Part shown: in pieces, positions 1 through 37,343 of the stretch
Position numbering within the stretch: the first letter of the stretch is position 1
How the letters are laid out: every line of letters begins with the position of its first letter
Origin: Nitrospira sp. LK70
GTDB lineage: Bacteria > Nitrospirota > Nitrospiria > Nitrospirales > Nitrospiraceae
DNA: 37,343 nt
Assembly: GCA_011090425.1 (NCBI GenBank)
Contig: PHGD01000049.1
Span: 1 to 37,343 of the forward strand
Direction: 5' to 3'
Notes under the pieces: generated by a model
Databases searched by the model: none
What the model saw: the letters and a program-made list of their open reading frames with translations, nothing else
What the model was told of the DNA's origin: nothing
Position numbers and translations under genes: made by a program

Positions 1-300
1 GTGCTCGCAGGATTGTGTGAAATTGGAGGTGGGTATCTTGTGTGGCTTTGGTTCCGCGAGGGACGGCCAATTGCATACGGAATTGCAGGAGCGGCCATTC
101 TTATTTTCTACGGCATCATACCGACGTTTCAACCAGCCCATTTTGGTCGTGTGTATGCCGCCTATGGCGGAATGTTTATTGTATTGTCCCTGTTGTGGGG
201 TTGGAGTATCGACGGGGATCGGCCTGACGTCTATGACGCGATAGGAGCCATTCTCTGTTTGGGCGGTATGATCGTCATGATGTATGCTCCCAGAACATGA
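1..300 (+). CDS. ynfA: YnfA/UPF0060-type membrane protein, 5' end cut by window
   Basis: A 99-residue hydrophobic reading frame is open from the first base. The motifs [12 protein letters not shown] near the start, GRVYAAYGG in the middle and a final GGMIVM segment match the UPF0060 (YnfA) family of small four-helix inner-membrane proteins. That family is about 108 residues, so roughly ten N-terminal residues probably lie outside the window; the GTG at base 1 need not be the start. The family resembles small multidrug resistance transporters, and its substrate here is unknown. It lies upstream of merT in the same direction, which is weak evidence for a metal or toxic-compound context. Family assignment is firm; function is not. 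Confidence 0.85.
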
Positions 301-31577: not shown

Positions 31578-31869
31578 AGGGTTTCTCCGCAACCAGTTCG
31601 AACAGCTGCTGATCCTGTCTCCATTGGCTGAGCCTACTCCTTCGTAGACATTGTCGCGTCCGGGACGCCGTACCGACGCCGCTCATCGTCAGTCAAGTCT
31701 CGTCCAATAGTTTTCCGCAACTCCGCCGCGAGTTCATTGATCGGGCGGCAGGCTTCGCAACGCCACAGCCGCGCTGTCCCATCCCAACTCGCCGTGACTA
31801 CCGTCTTCCCATCGGGCGCAAACTGCGCGTTCCTGACCCCTTCCTCATTGCCGCTCAGCAACTGCAGCT

Positions 31870-32009
31870 CCTTGCCGCTCGCGACGTCCCACAACCGCGC
31901 TGTGTCATCCGAACTCGCCGTGACGACCGTCTTCCCATCGGCGGCAAACTGCGCGTGCATGACCGAGTCCTCATGGCCGCGCAGGACGTGGAGCTCCTTG
32001 CCGCTCGCC
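31870..32009. repeat. WD40 module copy 1 of 3, 140 bp identical
   Basis: One 126-bp WD40 repeat with the residues GHEDSVMHAQFAADG plus a 14-bp overlap. By eye identical to 32385-32524 and 32933-33072. It is followed on the right by a second copy of the 14-bp end, which breaks the frame. Confidence 0.85.
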
Positions 32010-32384
32010 CCTTGCCGCTCGCCACATCCCACAGGTGTGCCGTCGAATCCCAACTCACCGTGACCACCGTTTTCCCGGCGAGGGCAAACTGCGCGCTCGT
32101 GACCCCGCCCTCATGCCGCAGGACGTGGAGCTCCTTGCCGCTCGCGACGTCCCACAACCGCGCTGTGTCATCCGAACTCGCCGTGACGACCGTCTTCCCA
32201 TCGGGGGCAAACTGCGCGCTCGTGACCGGGCCCGCATGGCCGCGCAGGATGTGGAACTCCTTGCCGCTCGCCACATCCCACAGCCGCGCGGTCTGGTCGT
32301 CGCTGGCCGTGACGACGGTCTTCCTATCGGGGGCAAACTGGGCGCTCGCGACCGGGCTCGCATGGCCGCGCAGGATGTGGAGCT

Positions 32385-32524
32385 CCTTGCCGCTCGCGAC
32401 GTCCCACAACCGCGCTGTGTCATCCGAACTCGCCGTGACGACCGTCTTCCCATCGGCGGCAAACTGCGCGTGCATGACCGAGTCCTCATGGCCGCGCAGG
32501 ACGTGGAGCTCCTTGCCGCTCGCC
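32385..32524. repeat. WD40 module copy 2 of 3, 140 bp identical
   Basis: Identical to the modules at 31870 and 32933. Its right end is followed by a 32-bp tandem copy of the module end (32525-32556), which shifts the frame. Confidence 0.85.
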
Positions 32525-32932
32525 CGCGCAGGACGTGGAGCTCCTTGCCGCTCGCCACATCCCACAGCCGCGCGGTCTGGTCGTCGCTGGCCGTGACGAC
32601 GGTCTTCCCATCGGGGGCAAACTGCGCGCTCGTGACCGGGCCCGCATGGCCGCGCAGGATGTGGAACTCCTTGCCGCTGGCGACATCCCACAGGCGCGCG
32701 GTCTGGTCTGTCTCAAAGGGCCTGCCACTCGCGGTGACGACGGTCTTGCCGTCGGGGGCAAACTGGGCGCTGTTGACCGGGCCCGCATGGCCGCGTAGGG
32801 CGTGCAACTCCTTGCCGCTGACGACATCCCACAGGCGCGCGGTCTTATCCTCGCTGGCCGTGACGATGGTCTTCCCATCGAGGGCAAACTGCGCGCTCGT
32901 GACCGGGCCCGCATGCCGCAGGACGTGCAGTT

Positions 32933-33072
32933 CCTTGCCGCTCGCGACGTCCCACAACCGCGCTGTGTCATCCGAACTCGCCGTGACGACCGTCTTCCCA
33001 TCGGCGGCAAACTGCGCGTGCATGACCGAGTCCTCATGGCCGCGCAGGACGTGGAGCTCCTTGCCGCTCGCC
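32933..33072. repeat. WD40 module copy 3 of 3, 140 bp identical
   Basis: Identical to the modules at 31870 and 32385. Right of it, 26 bp normally found between two WD40 repeats are missing, so the frame of the main gene ends just beyond it. Confidence 0.85.
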
Positions 33073-35574
33073 ACACGCGGTGACCACCGTCTTGCCGTCG
33101 GGGGCAAACTGGGCGCTGTTGACCGGGCCCGCATGGCCGCGCAGGACGTGCAACTCCTTGCCGCTGGCGACATCCCACAGGCGCGCGGTCTGGTCTGTCT
33201 CAAAGGGCATGCCACTCGCGGTGACGACGGTCTTGCCGTCGGGGGCGAACTGGGCGCTCGCGACAGGGACCGTATGGCCGCGCAGGACGTGCAACTCCTT
33301 GCCGCTGGCGACATCCCACAGGCGCGCGGTGTCATCATCGCTCGCTGTCACCACCGTCTTGCCGTCGGGTGCAAACTGCGCGCTGTTGATCGCGGTCGAG
33401 TTCGCGTGGCCGCGCAGGACGTGGAGCTCCTTGCCGCTCGCCACATCCCACAGCCGCGCGGCGTCGTCGCCCGCGGTGACCACCGTCTTGCCGTCGGGGG
33501 CGAACTGCGCGCTCGTGACCGGGCCCGCATGGCCGCGCAGGACGTGGAGCTCCTTGCCGCTCGCCACATCCCACAGCCGCGCGGTCTGGTCGTCGCTGGC
33601 CGTGACGACGGTCTTCCCATCGGGGGCGAACTGGGCGCTCGCGACCGGGCCCGCATGGCCGCGCAGGATTGTCTGCCCCACGTAGCGACCCGTCGCAGTA
33701 CGGATCAGCGCCTGAGTCTTGGCGACCGGGCTAATCTGCCAGGCAGCCAGCGCCAGCAAGGCGCTCTGATCGGGATAATTGTTGGCAAGGCCTTCGGCCT
33801 TCGTGGCGAGTTCGCCGGAGATGGCATCGCGTGCCATCCCTTCAGCGCGAGTCTTTTCCTGATTTGCCCGCCAAGCAGCCAGTACTGCAAGCACAAGACA
33901 CAGGACTGCCAGGACCACGCCAGACAATGCGATACGTGTTTTCCGGCGACTCGCAGTAGCAAATTCTTGTGCTTGTTGCTTTTCTTTTTCAGCTTGTAAT
34001 AGCTCAGCGTTTGCCCGCTCGGCTGCCTCACGCTGCACCTTCGCTTCGAGTTCCAGGCGCCTGGTTTCCGCCTCCTTGGCTTCGCGTTCCAACCGTTCCT
34101 GCTCGGCTTTGGCCTGCTTCACACGCTTGTTACTGCTCTCTATGTATTCGTGAACCTCAACATACCTGACAGAATCGGTGACAGGCCCCCCGTAACGCTC
34201 AGTCCATACAACGGGATCGGTTCGATCGGTGATCCGAGCGCGCCAACGCTGGGCCCGCACGCAGTCATATTTGTCCAGCCAGCCACCGCCTTCCTTCTGC
34301 CTGGCTACACGCTGTTGCCATTCTTTCAGCTCTGCGACATCCACATCTTCCTCCTCCAGCCATTGCCGCAACAGATGCCACTGGCGGAAAAGGCTCTCGT
34401 GGCTGATGTCGATCATCTGGTCGTCGTCGAGCTTCGTACCAGCGGCAGGCAGGAGAAAGCCGACCTCCTCAGTGCGAAAGGCCTTGATCACGGCCAGCAG
34501 ATTCTCTCGTTCCTGATCACCAACCGACTCGACCAACTGTTTCACCGTTTGCGGCCGACGCACCTCCCGGCCGTCGCGTCGCTCGACCAGCGCGAGGAAC
34601 ACCTGGCGTGCAATAGGCCGCTGCTGCAACGGGAGCGATTCGTAGATCTCGGAGGCGTGATTGTCGATGGCATGGGCCAATCGTGCCTGGCCCTCCTGTT
34701 TGTTATGCGAGTCACAGACTGCTTCGAAATCTTCCGTCTCAATGCTGGTACGCCCCGCGTCGCGAGCCCTGTTCCACATGCGCAGCAGCGCATGCTCCAT
34801 GATCGGCAGCTCGTCCTCGCCCCCTAACGTATTGACCAGCTTTGTGACCAGTACCGGATCAATCTCTCCACCGACGAGCGAGAGCGGTGAGGCGATAATC
34901 GACTTCAACTGGTCTGGCCCAAGCCGCGGCGTGAGGTAAATGCTGCGATTGATCGCCTCCGGCAGGCCAAAGAAGGCCACACAGTTGCCGAGGAAATCAG
35001 ACCGCATGGTCATCACGACATAAATCGGCACGTTCTCGGAGGCGGAGCGTAACAGCAGATTGATGAAGGATTCGGCTTCGTCGACGTTCCTCTGTCGATA
35101 GCGGAAAATCTCTTCGAACTGGTCCACGACCAGCAGCAGCGCCTGGCTGGCCATCACGTCCGCCTTCTGCCGGTAGAGCTCGGTCAGAGCCAGCGGACTC
35201 ATCGCCAGCGAAGCGCTCAGGGAAGCCACGGCGTCGGCGCGGTTGTCGCTATCCCTCCAGCCTGAATGCTCGGTCAGGGCCTGTGCCAGATTGGTCAGCG
35301 GTGCATCGCCTGGCTTGAAGATGCAGACGTTCCAGTTGTAGCCGGCGGACATGAGGGCGCCACGATGCAGGGCGGGAACCAGTCCGGCTCGCACGAGCGA
35401 CGACTTGCCGGTGCCAGAGGCCCCGAGGACGGCGATGAAGCGTTGCTCGGCTTCGAGCTCCGTTAACAACTCCCGCACATGCCGATCGCGTCCGAAAAAC
35501 AGGACCGCATCCCGTTCGTCGAATGGGCGAAGCCCGACGTAGGGAGCCCGCAGTGCCAAGGTGATGCGCTTCAT
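33034..35574 (-). CDS. nSTAND-type ATPase with coiled coil, membrane helix and WD40 repeats (C-terminus frameshifted)
   Basis: An 846-residue protein. Residues 12-30 (PYVGLRPFDERDAVLFFGRD) begin the nSTAND1 domain; Walker A is GASGTGKSS (51-59) and Walker B LLLVVDQFEEIF (147-158); ISHESLFRQW (390-399) is a typical C-terminal nSTAND segment. A charged coiled coil (about 485-545) leads into one membrane helix (548-569), then WD40 repeats from about 637: four complete and one broken. STAND ATPases switch on by oligomerisation, and the WD40 domain likely senses a ligand. The ATG is 2 nt past the stop of the TIR gene, so they form an operon. The C-terminus ends in a frameshift. Confidence 0.9.
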   Translation of the reverse strand: MKRITLALRAPYVGLRPFDERDAVLFFGRDRHVRELLTELEAEQRFIAVLGASGTGKSSLVRAGLVPALHRGALMSAGYNWNVCIFKPGDAPLTNLAQALTEHSGWRDSDNRADAVASLSASLAMSPLALTELYRQKADVMASQALLLVVDQFEEIFRYRQRNVDEAESFINLLLRSASENVPIYVVMTMRSDFLGNCVAFFGLPEAINRSIYLTPRLGPDQLKSIIASPLSLVGGEIDPVLVTKLVNTLGGEDELPIMEHALLRMWNRARDAGRTSIETEDFEAVCDSHNKQEGQARLAHAIDNHASEIYESLPLQQRPIARQVFLALVERRDGREVRRPQTVKQLVESVGDQERENLLAVIKAFRTEEVGFLLPAAGTKLDDDQMIDISHESLFRQWHLLRQWLEEEDVDVAELKEWQQRVARQKEGGGWLDKYDCVRAQRWRARITDRTDPVVWTERYGGPVTDSVRYVEVHEYIESSNKRVKQAKAEQERLEREAKEAETRRLELEAKVQREAAERANAELLQAEKEKQQAQEFATASRRKTRIALSGVVLAVLCLVLAVLAAWRANQEKTRAEGMARDAISGELATKAEGLANNYPDQSALLALAAWQISPVAKTQALIRTATGRYVGQTILRGHAGPVASAQFAPDGKTVVTASDDQTARLWDVASGKELHVLRGHAGPVTSAQFAPDGKTVVTAGDDAARLWDVASGKELHVLRGHANSTAINSAQFAPDGKTVVTASDDDTARLWDVASGKELHVLRGHTVPVASAQFAPDGKTVVTASGMPFETDQTARLWDVASGKELHVLRGHAGPVNSAQFAPDGKTVVTACGERQGAPRPARP

Positions 35575-35576
35575 CA

Positions 35577-37082
35577 CTAGAGCCCCCTCACGAAGTCCGC
35601 CAACCGCCGTTCGTCGATCGTGATCACGTCAGCCGACGTCAATCCAAGATCAGCCGCCTCCGTGCCAGGCGTGACATAGATGCCCCAACGCGCCAACGGC
35701 AGGTGGCACTCGGCGATCTGGTTCAGGAAGAAGATCAGCCGGTTGTAGACCGTGTCCCGCTTGGCTCCATCGGCAAAGACGGTGATGCCGGCCCGGCAAG
35801 GTTTGAGCACCTGAGCGATATCGATACCGTTGTTGCCCAAGGGGGCCATCGGCGGCAAGCCCCGAACGTCGCAGTTCGCGCCCCGCAGCCACGCGCGCAA
35901 TTTTTCGTTGAGCGCCTTTTCACCTGCCACATCGTCGACGAAGATCAGCTTCTTCACAGGCCCAGGCGCGGGGTGAACCGCTGCGGCCGCTTGGGCAGTC
36001 TCTGCCACCTGCTTGATGACCCGCAGCCTCGCCAGAATTTCGCTTTCAAACGATGTGCGGTTGGTCGCCCGCAGGTACTCGGTGTTGAACAGTCTCCGAT
36101 GCCCTTCATCCGCGATGTCGGCCTGGCCCGGCAACCGTTCGCACCATTGGAGAATCGGCAGCTTGGCCGAAATTGCGCCGTCGAACTGGAGCTGAGGTAA
36201 GGGGGCCGTGAAGCCTTTGCCTGTGCGGCCAACGGTGGTGGAGAGCAGTTGCACGAACAACTCACACCGGGCGAGATCGCGCGCAAACTCGATATTGAAC
36301 TCTTCCGGCGTCAGGCCGACATAATCCCCCTCCGGCAGGATCACGACCCCTTCCGGTTCCAACGCAGCCTTGACTGCGCTGCGCTGTGGAACCAAGTCGT
36401 CCGTCGTATCGGCCAAAAGGACTGTGCCGAGCGTTGCCGTAGCGCTCTGGTGGGAGGCGACTGGTGAGACATTCGTTGTCCGCGTGGTACTGGATGACGA
36501 AGGTTGGTCCCGACGCAACGTTCGAAGTCGGGAGTCGATCGCGTTCCTCAGCTCGTGTAGCTTCCGCCAGTAATGCCGCTCGCTGTCAGGTCCGCTCTCT
36601 TGCGGAGTAGGATTACCGGCCAGCAGTGGGGCTGAAGCATCGGCCGGTTTATGCCAGAACTGCGCATGGATGAGCCGCTTGCGGAGGTTCTCAATGTTGG
36701 CAGGGACGTTCGCGAAGGTCTCGAATGGAAACAGCTCGACCACGAAGACATCGGTCGGCTTGTCGGGATCGTTCGCATGAGTACGGACAAAATGGTCCAG
36801 TTCTTTTCCGCACCAGGTGGATTCGATGTAGTTCTGGGAGAGCAGCAGCAGGAGCAGCGTGCTGTGTTCGACCGTCGTAACAAGATCGTCGCTGAATACG
36901 TCGCCCGGCTTGAGCCGATGGTCGATGAAGAGGTTCTTGCGGTAGTGCCCTGGCCCTGTGTTCAGGTTGTGGGCGAGCGTCGTCACCCAGCCGTACTGCG
37001 CAGCCGACCCTAACGGTTTTTCGTTATCCGCATGGGCATAGCTGACGAAGACATCGTGTGCTTGCTCGGACCCGGTCGGCAT
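35577..37082 (-). CDS. TIR-domain protein, effector candidate for the nSTAND ATPase
   Basis: A 501-residue protein. Residues 9-150 are a TIR domain: HDVFVSYAHADN at the start, LFIDHRLKPGDVF, LLLLLSQNYIESTWCGKELD with Glu94 in the W-C-x-x-E position of the TIR NADase catalytic Glu. A second TIR-like or DUF4062-like region covers about 213-300 (TVLLADTTDDLVPQRSAVK). A third Rossmann-type region (KKLIFVDDVAGEKALNEKL, about 375-500) ends it. TIR proteins cleave NAD+ in several defence systems. Gene order with the nSTAND ATPase suggests that the TIR is the effector and the WD40-ATPase the sensor. Three such domains in one chain is unusual. Confidence 0.85.
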   Translation of the reverse strand: MPTGSEQAHDVFVSYAHADNEKPLGSAAQYGWVTTLAHNLNTGPGHYRKNLFIDHRLKPGDVFSDDLVTTVEHSTLLLLLLSQNYIESTWCGKELDHFVRTHANDPDKPTDVFVVELFPFETFANVPANIENLRKRLIHAQFWHKPADASAPLLAGNPTPQESGPDSERHYWRKLHELRNAIDSRLRTLRRDQPSSSSTTRTTNVSPVASHQSATATLGTVLLADTTDDLVPQRSAVKAALEPEGVVILPEGDYVGLTPEEFNIEFARDLARCELFVQLLSTTVGRTGKGFTAPLPQLQFDGAISAKLPILQWCERLPGQADIADEGHRRLFNTEYLRATNRTSFESEILARLRVIKQVAETAQAAAAVHPAPGPVKKLIFVDDVAGEKALNEKLRAWLRGANCDVRGLPPMAPLGNNGIDIAQVLKPCRAGITVFADGAKRDTVYNRLIFFLNQIAECHLPLARWGIYVTPGTEAADLGLTSADVITIDERRLADFVRGL

Positions 37083-37168: not shown

Positions 37169-37219
37169 CATAGCAGCCTGCGGAAAGACTCGATGTGTGT
37201 GCTTCGACAGGCTGCTATG
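37169..37219. repeat. 12-bp perfect inverted repeat upstream of the TIR gene
   Basis: CATAGCAGCCTG (37169-37180) and CAGGCTGCTATG (37208-37219) are exact inverse complements with a 27-nt loop. The arms share the CAGGCTG core with the ends of the 122-bp element at 28863. It is about 90 bp from the TIR start and could be a small mobile-type repeat or a regulatory hairpin. Confidence 0.6.
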
Positions 37220-37343
37220 TGGATGTCAAGTGGCCGATAGAGGAGTCCTCTTTCGGTTATCATCTGCGTGTCCTTTCAGCCCAAAGAGAGACTGGCTGCT
37301 ATGCGTGGCACGGCACACGGCCGTCACACTGACTTGGAATGCG

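What the first reader, a model, noticed from the sequence alone, without database searches (positions are those of the whole stretch)
31634..33072. Three identical 140-bp WD40 modules, each sitting at a reading-frame break
Modules at 31870, 32385 and 32933 match base for base over 140 bp, while neighbouring WD40 repeats differ. Each has a defect directly at its right end: a 14-bp tandem duplication (32010-32023), a 32-bp tandem duplication (32525-32556), and a 26-bp deletion. All three change the frame by the amount needed to explain the observed frame switch. Either these are recombination hotspots that vary the WD40 sensor, possibly by frame shifting, or a read-length-sized repeat was misassembled three times.
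Basis: partly seen in the sequence, partly recalled or inferred. Interest (0 to 1): 0.8.

Follow-up and report, generated by a model that had tools for sequence, protein, structure and literature searches.

The report
Assembly seams in a WD40 gene
Three identical WD40 blocks and the three reading-frame breaks beside them are there in the assembled text, but the breaks lie exactly where the assembler joined pieces at repeats it could not resolve, so the bacterial immune-type gene is most likely whole in the living cell.

Summary
Three 141-bp blocks are identical, and each has a frame-breaking defect at its right end (14-bp duplication, 32-bp duplication, 26-bp deletion). The gene lies on the minus strand: the WD40 half of an nSTAND1-WD40 ATPase behind a TIR gene in Nitrospira. 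The misassembly reading is the right one, and this can be shown without reads. Contig ends in this 201-contig assembly share exactly 144 bp with other contig ends (7 instances, never more), the junction length of a de Bruijn graph. In the window, the distance from each frame break to the point where that copy diverges from its siblings is also 144 bp, three times of three. The third copy starts and diverges 3 bp earlier (141 shared, offset 3), a nested pattern also seen between contig ends. The 14- and 32-bp duplications equal contig-end overlaps left unmerged. A second WD40 array in the same genome, with no identical tract above 95 bp, is in frame, and orthologs in Accumulibacter and Nitrosomonas are intact genes of 1311-1401 aa. 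The frame breaks are assembly seams. The module homogeneity is probably real and ordinary. Order and copy number of the blocks cannot be trusted.

The parts
35577..37082 (-). TIR-domain protein gene (501 aa), first gene of a two-gene unit
   Evidence: Pfam TIR_2 E=3.5e-11; TIR orthologs 71-77% identical directly upstream of the nSTAND1 gene in G004, G007, G059
31636..35577 (-). nSTAND1-WD40 gene, broken into four reading-frame segments in this assembly; the conserved C-terminal tail (RCEACRPINEL...RRRYGVPD) ends at about 31636
   Evidence: Pfam nSTAND1 E=2.1e-86 and WD40; tail conserved in orthologs; intact orthologs 1311-1401 aa
32932..33075 (-). Module copy 3: first 144 bp of contig piece B3 (ACA plus the 141-bp block)
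   Evidence: 144 bp from the J1 break to the point of divergence
32381..32524 (-). Module copy 2: first 144 bp of contig piece B2
   Evidence: identical to copy 1 over exactly 144 bp from the J2 break
31866..32009 (-). Module copy 1: first 144 bp of contig piece B1
   Evidence: 144 bp from the J3 break to the point of divergence
33075..33076 (.). Seam J1 (26 bp missing relative to the repeat period)
   Evidence: 97-bp repeat where 123 is expected; comparison with 33435-33490 puts the boundary at 33075|33076 (sequence)
32492..32556 (.). Seam J2: 32-bp tandem duplication equal to the overlap of the left piece's end with the start of the module
31996..32023 (.). Seam J3: 14-bp tandem duplication equal to the overlap of the left piece's end with the start of the module
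1..144 (.). Start of the contig: 144-bp overlap with the end of contig C80
37200..37343 (.). End of the contig: exactly 144 bp shared with the start of contig C155

Best explanation
The three frame breaks are joins made by the assembler, not features of the genome. The assembly behaves like a de Bruijn graph whose junctions are 144 bp long. The WD40 array holds a module repeated at or above that length. Contigs that leave the module therefore all begin with the same junction sequence: two with one 144-mer, the third with the 144-mer lying 3 bp upstream. In a later step (scaffolding or gap closing, inferred) three such contigs were placed after pieces that ended near the start of the module. 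Two joins kept short overlaps of 14 and 32 bp unmerged, and one left out 26 bp. The gene itself is most likely an ordinary uninterrupted nSTAND1-WD40 sensor ATPase working with the TIR protein upstream. Shown: the 144-bp rule and the exact coincidence. Inferred: which program step made the joins, and that the gene in the cell is in frame.
For: (1) Contig ends of this assembly share exactly 144 bp: C80->C114, C155/C114, C187/C170; C6/C65, C201/C25, C186/C60, C159/C54; none shares more. (2) Distance from break to divergence is 144 bp in all three modules: 32009->31866, 32524->32381, 33075->32932. (3) Nested geometry: copy 3 starts 3 bp earlier and shares 141 bp with the others, and the next bases branch A/G and then G/C; contig ends C200 against C186 and C60 show the same 141-bp share with offset 3. 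(4) The end of the left piece overlaps the start of the shared module by exactly 14 and 32 bp at J3 and J2, the lengths of the two duplications. (5) The only identical tracts above 95 bp in the window are these three, and the only frame changes in the array are beside them. (6) Control: the WD40 array on contig C152 of the same genome, longest identical tract 95 bp, is open over 1031 aa. (7) Orthologs are single open frames of 1311, 1347 and 1401 aa with the same C-terminal tail; the Nitrospira ortholog in G059 is in frame until its contig ends inside the array.
Against: No reads were available, so no join was seen to lack support. The ends of the left-hand pieces do not show a 144-bp junction of their own within the known sequence, so why they stopped is not explained. 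Orthologs in G004 and G007 are also frame-broken, which leaves room for real decay of this gene in some lineages. One contig link is 140 bp, not 144 (C113->C4). The J2 boundary is ambiguous by one base (143 or 144).
Confidence: 0.95

Rival explanations
1. The breaks are real: recent template switching or illegitimate recombination copied one module into three places and damaged the frame each time, leaving a fresh pseudogene.
For: All three copies are identical and each segment is open in its own frame, as expected of recent damage. Orthologs in G004 and G007 also carry frame breaks in the array.
Against: Three independent events would each have to lie exactly 144 bp from the point of divergence, the overlap length of unrelated contig ends of the same assembly. 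The junctions have almost no microhomology, and homologous exchange between repeats would keep the frame.
Confidence: 0.03
2. The array is a phase-variable sensor: slippage or recombination at the modules switches the WD40 frame on and off, or ribosomes shift frame there.
For: The sensor is repeat-rich, and other WD40 arrays with near-identical repeats exist in this and related genomes.
Against: Intact orthologs show no such junctions. Lengths 14, 32 and 26 are unrelated and the two duplications share one start. The assembly geometry explains all three.
Confidence: 0.01
3. A variant of the best explanation: the binned genome merges two or more strains whose arrays differ, and the assembler stitched their pieces, so part of the branching comes from strain variation rather than from repeats within one array.
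For: Bin contamination estimate 3.61%; branching in the graph could come from strain variants as well as from repeats inside one array.
Against: Would still make the breaks assembly seams. Nothing here separates the two sources of branching.
Confidence: 0.15

Closest known systems
De Bruijn graph contig-end overlap with unmerged scaffold joins
   Same: Nodes that meet in the graph overlap by a fixed number of bases (k-1 in the usual description, PMC9215042 abstract); here 144 bp at contig ends and at the three modules.
   Different: The joins are inside a contig and carry no N, so they are invisible without this comparison.
nSTAND1-WD40 ATPase with a TIR partner (STAND-type conflict system)
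   Same: nSTAND1 domain (PF20703), C-terminal WD40 array, TIR gene directly upstream; nSTAND1, TIR and WD40 proteins are described as parts of bacterial conflict systems (PMC10907252).
   Different: No experimentally characterised system was matched: PADLOC gave only weak hits. The TIR domain is encoded by a separate gene.

Membership tests
Assembly artefact at a repeat (de Bruijn seam) | Seam-to-divergence length equals the assembly's contig-end overlap | tested here: met
   144 bp in 3 of 3 modules and in 7 contig-end pairs
Assembly artefact at a repeat (de Bruijn seam) | Reads do not support the junctions | not testable with these tools
   no reads available
nSTAND1 ATPase with WD40 repeats | nSTAND1 NTPase domain | tested here: met
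   PF20703 E=2.1e-86
nSTAND1 ATPase with WD40 repeats | C-terminal WD40 array in one reading frame | tested here: inconclusive
   WD40 repeats present but split in four frame segments in this assembly; one frame in orthologs
TIR protein | TIR domain | tested here: met
   PF13676 E=3.5e-11
Known anti-phage system in PADLOC | Strong match to a system model | tested here: not met
   only mad8 E=3.9e-5 and PDC-S66 E=1.9e-5

The most novel reading that the evidence does not exclude
The frame breaks are real and the WD40 sensor of a TIR-nSTAND1 unit is diversified or switched by copying one module to new sites with a fixed start point; the 144-bp coincidence would then be chance.
Probability: 0.02. 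Interest if true: 0.6.

Novelty: not a real feature. Interest (0 to 1): 0.1.

Why it matters
Repeat-rich immune sensors in draft genomes can look like pseudogenes, or like recombination hotspots, because of unmerged contig joins that carry no N. Comparing the length of an identical tract next to a frame break with the overlap of contig ends in the same assembly exposes such seams without reads. Surveys of frame-broken or hypervariable WD40 and similar repeat proteins should apply this test first.

Tried and rejected
A donor copy of the module elsewhere in the genome was sought: full-length identical copies are these three only, all in this array. Microhomology-driven duplication was considered and rejected: the two duplications share one start and have at most 1-2 bp of microhomology (read from the sequence). 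PADLOC gave no convincing system.

Full report
What is there. The window is a whole contig, C114, of a 201-contig, 4.70-Mb draft genome. The genus is Nitrospira: the same-genus genome G059 holds a contig of the same length (379215 bp) and match as the GenBank record titled Nitrospira sp. KAN-bin2. The finding lies in the 3' half of a gene on the minus strand: an nSTAND1 ATPase (PF20703, E=2.1e-86) with C-terminal WD40 repeats, directly behind a TIR-domain gene. Three blocks of 141 bp are identical at 31869-32009, 32384-32524 and 32932-33072; the first two share 145 bp. No other identical tract in the window exceeds 95 bp.

Frame structure. Reading in gene direction and marking each repeat by its GKE codons, the array is in frame 0 for R1-R4, frame 1 for R5-R8, frame 0 for R10-R13 and frame 2 for R14-R15 and the tail. 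The frame changes only at three places, each immediately before one of the identical modules: a repeat shortened by 26 bp, a 32-bp tandem duplication (32492-32556) and a 14-bp tandem duplication (31996-32023). No segment contains a stop in its own frame.

The assembly's own ruler. I asked what length the assembler could not resolve. The first 144 bp of contig C114 equal the last 144 bp of C80, and its last 144 bp equal the start of C155; C187 and C170 start with the same 144 bp. Further families of contig ends give exactly 144 bp again for C6/C65, C201/C25, C186/C60 and C159/C54; nested members share 141-143 bp with an offset of 0-3 bp, and no pair shares more than 144. One link is 140 bp (C113 to C4). 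In a de Bruijn graph neighbouring nodes overlap by k-1 bases (PMC9215042, abstract), so 144-bp junctions are what an assembly with k of 145 would leave at branches. The program and its k are not known to me.

The modules obey the same ruler. From the J3 break (32009|32010, fixed by a 14-base period run of exactly 14) copy 1 runs 144 bp to 31866 before it diverges from copy 2. From the J2 break (32524|32525, ambiguous by one base) copy 2 runs 144 bp to 32381. From the J1 break (33075|33076, fixed by comparison with the homologous repeat at 33435-33490) copy 3 runs 144 bp to 32932, where it diverges from both. Copy 3 starts 3 bp earlier, and the first branch (A against G) comes 3 bp before the second (G against C). 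This is the nested pattern of two successive graph junctions, and contig ends C200 against C186 and C60 show the same thing: 141 bp shared, offset 3. The end of the left-hand piece at J3 overlaps the start of the module by 14 bp and at J2 by 32 bp, precisely the two duplications; at J1 there is no overlap and 26 bp are missing. Three unrelated biological events have no reason to measure 144 bp.

Controls and relatives. Another WD40 array of the same genome, on C152, has identical tracts of at most 95 bp and is open over 1031 aa. Orthologs of the two-gene unit were found in 3 of 78 other Nitrospira genomes searched and, in the GTDB contigs, in one Nitrosomonas and three Accumulibacter genomes at 59-65% identity over the nSTAND1 part. 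In the Nitrosomonas genome and two of the Accumulibacter genomes the nSTAND1-WD40 gene is one open frame of 1401, 1311 and 1347 aa with the same kind of C-terminal tail, and a TIR gene lies directly upstream. In the third Accumulibacter genome (L058) the array is open too. The window's gene spans about 3.94 kb, about the length of those. In the Nitrospira genome G059 the array is in frame until its contig stops inside it. The orthologs in G004 and G007 are frame-broken; G007 also has a stop and a different C-terminal part, so real decay of this gene occurs in some lineages or those assemblies have troubles of their own.

Conclusion. The breaks are seams between contig pieces that share a repeat of junction length. 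The modules themselves are probably really repeated, since the graph would not branch there otherwise, though strain mixture could add branches. Which piece follows which, and how many repeats the array holds, cannot be taken from this assembly. The gene most likely encodes an ordinary TIR-linked nSTAND1-WD40 sensor; this last step is inferred from orthologs. No mechanism of sensor variation needs to be invoked.

Noticed in passing
L032 4231-7642 (G007:C61): Ortholog of the nSTAND1 gene whose WD40 part is replaced by an unrelated C-terminal region; a frame-broken WD40 remnant with a stop and the conserved tail follows downstream.
   Followed up: partly
L031 2042-4512 (G004:C401): Ortholog with a shrunken WD40 array split over reading frames, in a 410-contig draft; real decay and repeat collapse by the assembler are both possible.
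   Followed up: partly
L055-L058; window 31636-37082: The TIR plus nSTAND1-WD40 pair is patchy in Nitrospira (4 of 79 genomes) but has close relatives in Nitrosomonas and Accumulibacter, which suggests horizontal exchange among bacteria of wastewater and nitrifying communities.
   Followed up: partly
L045 3924-6722 (G000:C170): A second TIR domain 80% identical to the window's, inside a 932-aa protein with further domains, on a contig whose start shares a dispersed repeat with the end of C114.
   Followed up: no
window 37200-37343: The contig ends in a dispersed repeat shared with C155, C87, C187 and C170; its nature was not determined.
   Followed up: no
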